Assembly: GCF_004027225.2 (NCBI RefSeq)
Contig: NC_044301.2
Span: forward strand, 17,257,255-17,321,254
DNA from: Strigops habroptila
Lineage: Eukaryota; Chordata; Aves; Psittaciformes; Psittacidae
Reading direction: 5' to 3'
DNA length: 64,000 nucleotides
Positions 45,223 to 50,234 of this stretch are shown here, piece by piece (position 1 is the first letter of the stretch; each line of letters opens with the position of its first letter). Under the pieces are notes generated by a model that ran no database searches, was not told the origin of the DNA, and worked only from the letters and a program-made list of their open reading frames with translations. The position numbers and the translations under genes are program-made.

Positions 45223-45837
45223 GTCTCACTTCTTATAGAAACAGGTTAGAATGCCTTTCCATGGGGTCAGGAGTAAGATCAGCCCTTCTACTCTGTCTGG
45301 AGACTGGATCAGCAACTCTCCTGGAAGAAACCCCACTGGTCGTTGTTTTCCCTTGCAAGTTATATGTGTCTCTAGGGTTGAGGTAGGCTTTCCATTCCAC
45401 TTCCTCATGTCTTCTCTGTAGTCCCACAGGTAAAAGCACAGGGTACCCCATGGTGTGTATCTTCTATATCCTCCCTCTTGAGTGGAAGGATGCTTACTGT
45501 TAACAGCTGAGATACCAGTCCATACATGTGGGGAGAAGGATCTATCCTTGTCAAGTCGCTGAACCAGTTTCTCCACAGCCAAGACAAGGGAGGAAGAGAG
45601 ATTTTCTTTGTATTGCCAGACATGGCATTCAACTTCATCAGTGCCTCTTCGTCTCTCCAGCTCATTACTGCCAACGAGTTGGCATATGACGATGGTGGAC
45701 TTCGTACCAACTTCTGCCAAATGGGTAATGCACATTGGACTTCGTCTGTGTCTATGCGTAACTGTGCATTGTTCAGGTCATAATAGATCCTCTCTAGCAT
45801 GGCTAATTCCCTCAGGTACTGAATACCTCTCTCCATT
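45223..45837 (-). pseudogene. Inverted gag fragment of the ERVL-like family
   Basis: Minus-strand frames at 45226-45735 and 45405-45851 match the C-terminal half of the gag at about 48090-48740 (shared landmarks: G-I-Q-x-L-R-E, a Y-R-R-Y-T-P motif, F-Y-L-W-D and D-M-R-K-W). It belongs to a second, diverged copy of the same family, in opposite orientation to the provirus that begins at 45838. Confidence 0.9.
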
Positions 45838-46403
45838 TGTCCTGGGTTCAACTATAGCAGTTATTTTTCTCCTTCTTAGTAGCTGGTGCAGTGCTGTGTT
45901 TTTGACTTTCAGCCTGGGAACAATGCTGATAATACCAATGTTTTTAGTTGTTGCTAAGTAATGTTTACTCCGACGAAGGACTTTCTCACTCTCATGCTCT
46001 GCCAGGGAGGAGGGGAAGCCAGGAGGAAGCAGAGACAGGACACCTGACCCAAACTAGCCAAAGGGGTATTCCATACCACAGCACATCATGCCCAGTATAT
46101 AAACAGGGGGGAGTTACCCAGAAGCTCAGATCACTGCTTGGGTTGGGCTGGGTATCGGTCAGCGGGTGGTGAGCAATTGTATCCTTTCCCCTTGTTATTT
46201 CACTAATCATTATTATTATTAGTGGTGGTAGTAGTGGTTTTGTATTATACCTTAGTTACTGGACTGCTCTTATCTCAAACCGTGGGAGTTACATTCTTCT
46301 GATACTCCTCCCCATCCCTCCGGGAGCAGGGGGAGGAAGAAGGGGGGGGAGTGAGCGAGCAACTGCGTGGTTCCCAGTTACCGGCTGGGCTCAAACCACG
46401 ACA
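45838..46403 (+). mobile_element. 5' LTR of the ERVL-like provirus (566 bp)
   Basis: From TGTCCTGGGTTCAAC to AACCACGACA, with a TATATAAA box at 46096-46103 and a T/A-rich R region near 46190-46260. The left flank CCATT is not repeated after 51359. Confidence 0.93.
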
Positions 46404-46411
46404 GTTCTTTG

Positions 46412-46429
46412 TGGTGCCCAACATGGGGC
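46412..46429 (+). promoter_or_regulatory. Primer-binding site, lysine-tRNA type with two changes
   Basis: TGGTGCCCAACATGGGGC starts 8 bp after the LTR. It differs from the lysine-1,2 PBS by two transitions, both at former CpG positions (C to T and G to A), consistent with CpG decay. Confidence 0.75.
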
Positions 46430-46965
46430 ACGAAGGGTTGAGATAACGACAGATCTGACCACAGTGTGTCTAATCATATTTGTGATAAACATTCATTGTT
46501 ACTACTTGTCACAATGTTGATTTATTTGCTCTCAGAGTCGTTGCACTAGATCTAAGAGTTTCAGCATGTCATACCTTACTTACAGCAAGTATTTGCTGTT
46601 TTAGTGTTTATCGGCTGGGAGGCCTGGGCTAAGGTTACTGTTTCACTGTACTTCATGGTAATGACTTGTAATGCAATAGAATCATTGATCCTGAAAATGG
46701 TCTGGCTTGCGTTCCCGCGTGGTCATCACCTCAATACTTTAGGAGGTATATAATGAAATTTCTTAGCAATTGCATATCTTTTTTTTCTCCTCGGGGGGTC
46801 AACCTATGAAGGAGGCATTCCCTTACACCCTCCGCTCCCCCACCAGGCTACTTACAGCAGCATTTAAGAGTTCTGAAGTTTTTGGATGGCCTTTGAATAC
46901 CCTTGAGACCTGCCTGCTGATTGTGCTGGGGATCAGCATGTTGGCACACATACACAGTGTGTTTT

Positions 46966-47095
46966 ACCCATGGCCATCCCACCCTGGGAACACCCTATTT
47001 CATCTGATCTTGAAAGTTAAGCAGTATCGGGTTCAAATCTGGTCTAGGGTTAGACAACGATGATATAGGAGGACCACCAAGAGATTTTCCCCGAG
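46966..47095 (+). ncRNA. 5S-rRNA-like segment in the provirus leader
   Basis: Bases 46972-47032 align to vertebrate 5S rRNA from GGCCAT to TCGGGCC (about positions 7-63) with roughly three quarters identity by eye. Shared blocks include GGCCAT, CCACCCTG, TCTGATCT and TAAGCAG, and many differences are CpG transitions. A weaker continuation (GGTTAG, GATG, GGAGGACCACC against GGAGACCGCC) suggests up to about 47095. Between the PBS and gag, in the same orientation as the provirus. Not a functional 5S gene: the internal control region is altered. Confidence 0.72.
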
Positions 47096-47120
47096 GCTGG
47101 ACAGTCATGAATGGCAGGGT

Positions 47121-48764
47121 GTGCGGGATAGTATGGGCAAGTATCTAGGCCAGTGGGCCCCTCCAGTGCTTTGGAACTTCACCACTGAACAAGTGCAACA
47201 TCCGGAAAAACTAGTAAAACACTTAAAAGAGGTGTGCTGTTGTCCTGGTTATACCACAGAGGGACAACTTGCTGCAACGTGCTGGGGCTTGGCCTACACC
47301 TACAGAGCCCTGCTCAACACTATCCAGCACCTTCAAAGGGAAAAAAAAGTCTCTGGATCTGATGGCAAAGCAACAGACAACGCAGTTACTCCAACTACAA
47401 GCACAGCAACTACACCAACCCCAGTGAGAAGCACAGCAGCTACTCAAACCTCAACAGCAACAGACAATGCAGCTGTTGGTGTTACTCAACCCCCAAGCAC
47501 AACAGCTGTACCAACCCCGGCAACAGAGACTGCAGCCACTCCAACCCTAGTGGCAGACGCTGCAGCCACTCCAACCACAGTCATAAACACTGCAGCTAAA
47601 CCAAATGGCCAATTTGTGACAATGTCTGTTGCCCCTGTAAGCAAAAGCAAACAAGAGGCACAAAGAGCAACCTGCGAAGCGAAGAAAGATGAAGACCCAA
47701 TGCCATTACTACACGGAACACCATCTGAACAAGAGTTACTACTACATGGATCAGAGGAAGAGGAAGAAGAAGAAGAAGAGGTGACTTCTCAACCCCGGAC
47801 CTCAACTGAGCTGCGGAATATGCGAAAATATTTCACCCGTCTTCCAGGGGAGCACATCGTCACCTGGTGGCTCCAATGCTGGGACAATGGGGCCGATGGT
47901 CACGAACTAGAAGGTAGGGAAGCCAAGCAGCTGGGATCACTTGCTAGGGAAGGAGGAATTGACAAAGCGATTGCAAGAGAGAAGCAAGCCCTAAGCCTTT
48001 GGAGGCGGCTCCTGGCAGCTGTGAAGGACAGGTTTCCCTACAAAGACGATATTACGAGTCGCTCAGCCAACTGGACCATGATAGAGAAAGGCATCCAGTC
48101 CCTGAGGGAATCAGCCATTCTAGAGATGATCTATCATAGGCCAGATGCCAGGAACAGATCCGTAGATCCAGATGAAGTCGAATGTACATGACCCATGTGG
48201 TGGAAACTTACACGGAGTGCACCATCATCATATGCCCACTCATTGGGATCAATGACCTGGAATGATGGAGTATCACCAACAGTGGATGAACTGATTCGTC
48301 AACTCCGAGAGTTCGAAGACAATCTCACCCCTTCCATCATTTCAGCTGTGGAAAAACTGTCCCAGGAGTTCAAACAATTGAGAGACGATTTATCCGATCT
48401 ATCCAGCTCCCCACGTGTACAAACCCATGTCTCAGCTATTAACAGAAGGCGCCCTACTGCTCGAGAGAGAAAATATAGGAGATACACGCCACGGGCCACC
48501 CTATGGTTTTACCTGTGGGATCACGGAGAAGACATGAGAAAGTGGGATGGAAAACCTACCTCAGTTCTGGAGCAACGGGTGCGTGAACTGAAGAGGAGAA
48601 CAATGGTCAAGGATGATCCTCCCATGAAAGCTGCTGCTCCAGTCTCTGGTGAGCAGTTTCCCAGATGGAGTGGAAGAGCTGATTTTACTCCAGCTCCTGT
48701 GATAAGGAATACTAATCCCTTTCTACAAGATATAAGTGGAGAATTTTATGATCACTATTAGAGG
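47121..48764 (+). pseudogene. gag of the ERVL-like provirus, interrupted by one in-frame stop
   Basis: The first frame (47121-48191) is 356 residues: an N-terminal domain, a Thr/Ala/Pro-rich linker at about residues 80-165, a nine-Glu tract near residues 233-241, then a capsid-like region with W-W-L-Q-C-W. A TGA at 48189-48191 interrupts it; the same frame continues at 48195-48761 with the Y-R-R-Y-T-P and F-Y-L-W-D landmarks shared by the inverted copy. I see no CCHC knuckle. Apart from the single stop the frame is well kept, suggesting moderate age. Confidence 0.85.
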
Positions 48765-48782
48765 GGCCCTGCCTCCATCCAG

Positions 48783-50234
48783 GTGGAGGAGAGGGATAAT
48801 CAGGTTTACTGGACTGTGTGGATCAGATGGCCTGGCACATCAGTCCCACAGGAGTATAAGGCTCTAGTAGATACCGGTGCACAGTGTACCCTGATGCCAT
48901 CAAGGTATCAAGGGGTGGAACCCATTTATATTTCTGGAGTGACAGGAGGATCCCAAGAGTTGACTGTACTGGAGGCTGAAATCAGCCTGACTGGGAGGAA
49001 GTGGCAAAAGCACCCCATTGTGACTGGTCCAGGGGCTCCATGCATCCTTGGCATAGACTATCTCAGGAGATGGTACTTCAAAGACCCAAAAGGGTATGGA
49101 TGGGCTTTTGGTATCACTGCCTTGGAAACAGAGGAAATGAAGCAGCTGTCCACCTTGCCCAGTCTCTCAGAAGATCCTTCTGTTGTGGGGTTGCTGAAGG
49201 TCGAAGAACAACAAGTGCCAATCACTACCACAAGAGTGCACCGGCAGCAATATCGCACCAACCGAGACTCCTTGATTCCCATCCATAAGCTGATCCGTAG
49301 ACTGCAGAACCAAGGAGTGATCAGCAGGACTCGCTCACCCTTTAATAGCCCCATATGGCCAGTGCAAAAGTCTAATGGAGAGTGGAGATTAACAGTAGGC
49401 TATCGTGGCCTGAATGAAGTCACACCACCATTACCTGCTGCCATACCGGACATGCTAGATCTTCAATATGAACTGGAGTCAAAGGCAGCCAAATGGGATG
49501 CCACAAGTGATATTGCCAATGCATTTTTCTCAATCCCTTTGGCAGCAGAATGCAGGCCACAGTTTGCTTTCACTTGGAGGGGCGTCCAGTAAACTTGGAA
49601 CCGACTGCCCCAGGGGTGGAAACACAGCCCTACCATCTGCCATGGATTGATCCAGACTGCATTGGAACAGGGGCAAGCTCCAGAACACCTGCAATACATT
49701 GATGACATCATCGTGTGGGGCGATACAGTGGAAGAAGTTTTTGAGAAAGGGAGGAAGATAATCCAAATCCTGCTGAAGGCCAGTTTTGCCATAAAATGGA
49801 GTAAGGTCAAGGGACCTGCACAGGAGATTCAATTCTGGGGAATAAAATGGCAAGATGGACGTCGCCAGATCCCCACAGACATGATCAACAAGATAACAGC
49901 AATGTCTCCACCAACTAACAAGAAAGAAACCCAAGCTTTCTTAGGTGTTGTGGGGTTCTGGAGAATGCACATCCCAAATTACAGTCTGATTGTAAGCCCT
50001 CTCTACCACGTGACCCAGAAGAAGAATGATTTCAAATGGGGCCCTGAGCAACAACAAGCCTTTGAACAAATTAAACGAGAAAGAGTTCATGCAGTAGCCC
50101 TTGGACTAGTCCGGGCCGGGCCAGATGTGAAAAATGTGCTCTATACCGCAGCATGGTCCTACCTGGAGCCTCTGGCAGAAAGTTCCAGGGGAGACTCGAG
50201 GTCGACCCCTTGGCTTTTGGAGTCGGGGATATAA
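48783..50234 (+). pseudogene. Protease and reverse transcriptase of the ERVL-like provirus
   Basis: The aspartic protease has an intact D-T-G at residues 30-32 of this frame and a C-terminal I-L-G-I-D motif. RT follows with fingers/palm motifs, S-P-T-I-C-H-G after the interruption, and the active site Y-I-D-D at 49695-49706. A single TAA at 49590-49592 interrupts the RT in frame, and a frameshift near 50200 ends it in the connection/RNase H approach. In a working element this would be one pro-pol polyprotein. Confidence 0.9.

What the first reader, a model, noticed from the sequence alone, without database searches (positions are those of the whole stretch)
46966..47095. 5S-rRNA-derived segment carried in the leader of an ERVL-like provirus
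Between the primer-binding site and gag lies a stretch that aligns to 5S rRNA (blocks GGCCAT, CCACCCTG, TCTGATCT and TAAGCAG in order and at the right spacing over 61 bp, with a weaker tail). Sequence shows the similarity directly; the 5S block order is established knowledge; acquisition by the retroelement is inference. Capture of a Pol III gene piece in a retroviral leader would be unusual and could affect packaging, translation or Pol III factor binding. It also creates a GGTTCAAATCT stretch that resembles a tRNA B box.
Basis: partly seen in the sequence, partly recalled or inferred. Interest (0 to 1): 0.75.

Follow-up and report, generated by a model that had tools for sequence, protein, structure and literature searches.

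The report
5S rRNA piece inside retroviral Gag
A family of ancient retroviruses in parrot DNA carries some 60 letters of 5S ribosomal RNA, in frame, inside its Gag protein gene, which looks like a scrap of host RNA that was patched into a virus and then copied many times.

Summary
The 5S similarity is real, but it lies inside the N-terminal gag reading frame, not in an untranslated leader, and only the 5' half of 5S is there. Window 46972-47031 matches 5S nt 7-66 without gaps at 46 of 60 bases (score 64; 2000 shuffles reach 31). Rfam RF00001 agrees (30.9 bits, E 2.7e-4), below its gathering score. The 'weaker tail' is gag. Gag proteins of the parrots Guaruba and Melopsittacus read like frame +3 of 5S there (Guaruba 14 of 20 residues; 0 of 500 shuffles as good for either). 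Raptor, ibis, duck and goose relatives run past this place without the 23 codons. In the host genome 28 of 28 fetched copies (one is the window), selected by similarity, carry the block at one place; one sister copy lacks it (L040). Best reading: a single RNA-templated patch of packaged 5S rRNA into gag, kept in frame and amplified. The RNA route is inferred. A Pol III promoter role is unlikely because the C-box half is missing. Cassandra and Ajax carry 5S in LTRs of non-coding elements.

The parts
45838..46403 (+). 5' LTR of the provirus (TG...CA, 566 bp)
   Evidence: blastn of 45780-46440 against the window: four other LTR-like places 72-79% alike over 585-633 bp, two partial ones 80-85%; no close 3' LTR found
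46412..46429 (+). primer-binding site; looks tRNA-Lys1,2-like with two CpG-decay changes (assignment recalled)
   Evidence: read from the sequence; assignment not tested
46514..46714 (+). start of the hydrophobic gag N-terminal extension, two in-frame stops in this copy
   Evidence: tblastn of P0021 residues 1-67, also P0005, P0006, P0029
46806..47060 (+). gag N-terminal part with a hydrophobic helix, open up to a TGA at 47061-47063
   Evidence: tblastn of P0001 1-224 over 46806-47513, 59%, E 4e-93; ORF 46767-47063
46953..47030 (+). codons absent from insert-lacking relatives (26 codons here, 23 in P0001)
   Evidence: MAFFT of 15 chosen N-terminal peptides, raised gap penalty
46966..47031 (+). 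segment derived from 5S rRNA, sense; solid for nt 7-66, nt 1-6 placed mainly by the covariance model
   Evidence: cmscan RF00001; pairwise 46/60 for nt 7-66
47064..48191 (+). gag core (375 aa, open)
   Evidence: 296 relatives at E <= 0.001, 120 listed, best two parrots
48762..50234 (+). protease and reverse transcriptase, two ORFs
   Evidence: Pfam RVT_1 (E 6e-11 in the second ORF); protease and first RT piece below Pfam's cut-off; RT structures matched

Best explanation
An ancestor of this avian provirus family acquired about 60-66 nt of host 5S rRNA (from near its 5' end to nt 66) as an in-frame insertion of 23 codons into gag, just after a hydrophobic, probably membrane-spanning helix and before the conserved gag core. 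Most likely 5S rRNA packaged in a virion served as a patch template during minus-strand synthesis: reverse transcriptase jumped from gag RNA into 5S near nt 66, copied to about its 5' end and jumped back. Frame +3 of human 5S has no stop before nt 114, so such a patch can be translated, here as a probably disordered linker. The insertion was tolerated and then spread with the element in parrots. Shown: 5S identity, in-frame position, presence at one place in the copies examined, relatives without it. Inferred: RNA template, single event, membrane topology, linker role.
For: DNA and covariance match. P0001 residues 54-73 against 5S frame +3: score 70, null maximum 43, 0 of 500; P0002: score 60, null maximum 41, 0 of 500. 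P0122, P0123, P0076 and copies L034 and L041 keep 5S-like residues lost in the window (R-P and/or R-L with I/S). The insert stands out as one clean run against seven insert-lacking rows of 15. Of 132 proteins held, 34 had 35 or more residues before a gag anchor: 3 carry it, 25 lack it, 6 are unreadable there, by my eye. 28 of 28 fetched host copies, one being the window, carry it at the same place. In 20 stretches of 10 kb spaced along the same contig: whole block in 3 copies, its 3' half in 1, at most its last dozen bases in 1, none in 1. P0001 and P0002 agree at 23/26 residues in the block, 41/49 before and 26/35 after it. The model gives pLDDT below 50 for residues 51-76, right after helix 32-50. 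Precedent, passages of PMC4997597: 5S rRNA is packaged in MLV, 7SL was patched into a retroviral recombinant, patch repair uses host sequence.
Against: The window's own translated block is weak as a peptide (score 33, 15 of 500 shuffles as good), as is P0076 (33, 33 of 500); the non-carrier P0006 reaches 34 (24 of 500). The protein argument thus rests on P0001 and P0002. Covariance scores are below Rfam's gathering score in all 20 loci scanned, and 6 of the 20 gave no match at E <= 0.1. The host's 5S gene could not be retrieved, so identity was counted against recalled human 5S. The 28 copies were selected by similarity to the block. Nt 1-6 are poorly matched and the junctions are not resolved to the base; L040 has changes of its own there. 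Nothing here separates an RNA patch from insertion of a 5S fragment as DNA.
Confidence: 0.7

Rival explanations
1. A 5S-derived SINE (SINE3/AmnSINE type) or a 5S pseudogene fragment inserted as DNA into one provirus, and only the 5' part of 5S remains.
For: 5S-headed SINEs exist, and PMC10886601 (discussion) proposes SINE3 insertion as the origin of Ajax and Cassandra.
Against: No 5S beyond nt 66 is detectable in the window, L041 or L043, whereas a SINE head needs the promoter to nt ~97 (recalled); relatives show one clean 23-codon insertion with no evident extra body.
Confidence: 0.2
2. The block is kept for RNA or promoter function (TFIIIA/Pol III binding, packaging through 5S-binding proteins) rather than as coding sequence.
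For: Sense orientation; the A-box region (recalled nt 50-64) is included; a B-box-like string lies at 47030-47039.
Against: C-box half absent; the block of the window and of L041 folds no better than shuffles (z 0.46 and -0.03); B-box letters impossible in P0001 and P0002; the seven-codon loss in P0076 and P0123 keeps the reading frame.
Confidence: 0.07
3. Chance similarity of gag coding sequence to 5S.
For: The peptide of this copy alone is near the noise (15 of 500 shuffles), and no copy reaches Rfam's gathering score.
Against: 0 of 2000 shuffles at DNA level; two parrot proteins are closer to 5S than the window is; the match coincides with the codons that relatives lack.
Confidence: 0.02

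Closest known systems
Cassandra and Ajax (TRIMp3 retroelements; PMC10886601 abstract and discussion seen; PMC10853983 title and abstract start in a listing)
   Same: 5S-derived sequence carried by an LTR retroelement
   Different: There it lies in the LTRs of short non-autonomous elements and supplies, or probably supplies, a Pol III promoter; here it lies in gag of a coding provirus, without the C-box half
Retroviral patch recombinants with host small RNA, such as the 7SL recombinant of Hajjar and Linial 1993 (seen only as cited in passages of PMC4997597)
   Same: A Pol III host RNA that virions can package ends up as an insert in a provirus
   Different: That recombinant was experimental; this insert is in frame in gag and sits in many genomic copies
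SINE3 / AmnSINE1 (recalled, and the PMC10886601 discussion)
   Same: 5S-derived head
   Different: No C box and no second module or tail detected here

Membership tests
5S rRNA gene or pseudogene (RF00001) | match at the gathering score over full length | tested here: not met
   30.9 bits against 38; homology not detectable after nt 66
5S rRNA gene or pseudogene (RF00001) | sequence derived from 5S | tested here: met
Cassandra/Ajax (TRIMp3) | 5S-derived sequence in the LTR | tested here: not met
   the block starts 563 bp after the LTR end, in gag
Cassandra/Ajax (TRIMp3) | short element without protein genes | tested here: not met
   gag and RT present
SINE3 | internal promoter including C box, and a 3' body | tested here: not met
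   no 5S after nt 66; box positions recalled
Retroviral host-RNA patch | insert absent from sister elements, flanks continuous | tested here: met
Retroviral host-RNA patch | RNA template rather than DNA | not testable with these tools
   a 5' limit near 5S nt 1-5 is compatible with run-off at an RNA end, no proof
ERVL (class III) | RT groups with ERVL and foamy viruses | tested here: inconclusive
   RT piece matches a p80 RT of the murine/xenotropic type best (4hkq, E 1.8e-23) and a Pr125Pol entry next (7o0h, E 6.9e-18); virus names of the entries recalled; no tree built

The most novel reading that the evidence does not exclude
A non-coding host RNA became protein-coding virus sequence: the 5S-encoded linker of some 20 residues after the hydrophobic helix is under selection in parrot ERV Gag, so a retrovirus gained a new Gag segment by reading ribosomal RNA in frame +3, and the N-terminus of this gag is a repeated capture site (Amazona copies fuse an MXRA7-like host segment there as well).
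Probability: 0.25. Interest if true: 0.78.

Novelty: new variant of a known kind. Interest (0 to 1): 0.6.

Why it matters
Retroviruses package Pol III RNAs, and patching of such RNA into a provirus is known from an experimental recombinant. Here is a natural, amplified case in which the patch lies in the gag reading frame, with empty-site relatives that should let the event be placed on the bird tree. It also warns that a 5S-like string in a retroelement need not be a promoter.

Tried and rejected
Scans of IMG/VR with gag, protease-RT and N-terminal peptides and with one DNA pattern, and of prokaryote genomes with P0001, gave no relative. Pfam and NCBIfam found nothing credible in the gag N-terminal or fusion proteins. 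A Foldseek search with the P0001 model (mean pLDDT 63.5, pTM 0.47) gave nothing (best E 2.6). Paper searches: 5S with ERVs or gag, Cassandra, MXRA7 with ERVs, kakapo W, ERVL/spuma Gag. The lists were capped. Among the titles and abstract starts shown I saw no report of this case; that is all the absence claim rests on. PMC8775094 mentions a provirus next to a 5S gene, which is unrelated (passages). A search for chicken-type 5S strings found no paper. Chance, a complete Pol III promoter and a retained 5S fold were tested and rejected. The left-boundary walk for L041 used a wrong offset and was not used.

Full report
What is there. Window 46966-47031 resembles the 5' half of 5S rRNA on the sense strand. 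cmscan over 46600-47400 gives RF00001 at 46966-47051 with 30.9 bits and E 2.7e-4, and two chance-level matches to other families; over the whole window nothing reaches a gathering score. Its score of 64 compares with 30 for tiles that do not overlap the block and at most 31 in 2000 shuffles. Nt 1-6 match at 2 of 6 in the window, while copy L041 keeps nt 5-8. After 47031 there is no 5S: the tail scores 17, 15 and 13 in the window, L041 and L043, with 339, 939 and 1630 of 2000 shuffles as good.

Where it lies. The provirus has a 5' LTR at 45838-46403 and a PBS-like string at 46412-46429 (read). tblastn of avian gag proteins shows gag homology from 46514 (P0021 residues 1-67, two stops in this copy). 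From 46806 it runs in one frame through the block to 47513 (P0001, 59%, E 4e-93, one stop at 47061-47063). Counted from 46514, the block is about 150 codons into gag.

Relatives. The downstream gag ORF found 296 proteins at E <= 0.001 among 7996 scored candidates, 120 listed; the best two are from parrots, Guaruba guarouba and Melopsittacus undulatus. Both contain, in line with the window's block, a peptide like frame +3 of 5S: P0001 has PHHPENTRSCPISEAKQGQA against PYHPERARSRLISEAKQGRA, 14 of 20 (score 70, 500 shuffles at most 43); P0002 scores 60 (at most 41). The window's own peptide scores 33 (15 of 500 as good) and P0076 33 (33 of 500); the non-carriers P0005, P0006, P0011 and P0018 score 28, 34, 27 and 26. 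So the protein argument comes from two better-preserved parrot proteins, the DNA argument from the window. Other parrot proteins (P0035, P0051, P0088, P0096) begin after the block and say nothing. A search with residues 1-110 of P0001 found P0001 and P0002 among 12 candidates. A search with N-terminal pieces gave 12 proteins. Of these P0122, P0123, P0125 and P0126 carry the block or a shortened form, P0121, P0124 and P0127 lack it, and P0128-P0132 end where it would begin. P0123 and P0076 (Amazona, Neopsephotus) share an in-frame loss of seven codons.

Presence and absence. A hand-made anchor pattern on the 132 proteins held found 34 with 35 or more residues before the gag core: 3 carry the block (P0001, P0002, P0123), 25 run from a hydrophobic stretch into the core without it, and 6 have other 5' ends (my reading; the duck and goose flanks are loosely alike). 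Named species among the 25 are raptors, an ibis, a duck and a goose; eight are unnamed. In an alignment of 15 chosen rows, 8 carry it and 7 do not, and the difference is one run of 23 codons in P0001 and 26 in the window (gap penalty raised). The named carriers are parrots; P0122 is unnamed.

How it may work. The P0001 model (51 sequences, mean pLDDT 63.5) has helix 32-50, then residues 51-76 with pLDDT below 50, which is the 5S-like part. The simplest picture is a disordered linker behind a membrane helix. The block folds as RNA no better than shuffles (z 0.46 and -0.03). 5S boxes (recalled: A 50-64, IE 67-72, C 80-97) imply that the C box was not captured. The B-box-like string sits at the 3' junction. 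Passages of PMC4997597 report 5S rRNA in MLV particles, 7SL patched into a recombinant, and patch repair with host sequence, which makes an RNA patch the likeliest route. Insertion as DNA remains possible.

Comparison. Cassandra and Ajax carry 5S in LTRs of short non-autonomous elements (PMC10886601, abstract and discussion). Here the 5S piece is internal, in a coding frame and without the second half of the promoter. It is not a member of those groups and probably does not work like them. It fits natural retroviral patch insertion, as a new variant.

Doubts. No DNA of other parrots, no host 5S gene, junctions unresolved to the base, selection on the block untested beyond 23/26 identity between P0001 and P0002, and ERVL membership not settled.

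Noticed in passing
proteins P0123, P0125, P0126, P0128-P0132: Eight Amazona aestiva proteins, on contigs of eight different lengths, share a host-like segment fused before this gag's hydrophobic helix. P0129 and P0132 are named matrix-remodeling-associated protein 7 by NCBI and P0130 by UniRef. Against human MXRA7 (recalled) P0129, P0130, P0132, P0123 and P0128 score 100, 99, 87, 83 and 65, with 300 shuffles at most 69, 75, 67, 73 and 61; the sequences are compositionally biased and Pfam finds no domain. It may be a second host capture at the gag N-terminus.
   Followed up: partly
gag N-terminus, window 46514-47060; P0005, P0006, P0021: These avian Gag proteins have an N-terminal extension of about 150 residues with hydrophobic stretches and NYT-type sites, reminiscent of a membrane-inserted, glyco-Gag-like form.
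   Followed up: partly
G000:C25: The contig, W-like by size, holds 32 of the 40 scored copies; PMC8310711 (passages) reports ERV accumulation on avian W chromosomes, kakapo included.
   Followed up: no
window 45226-45851 (-) against 48081-48572: An antisense gag fragment of a related element lies next to the 5' LTR of this provirus.
   Followed up: no
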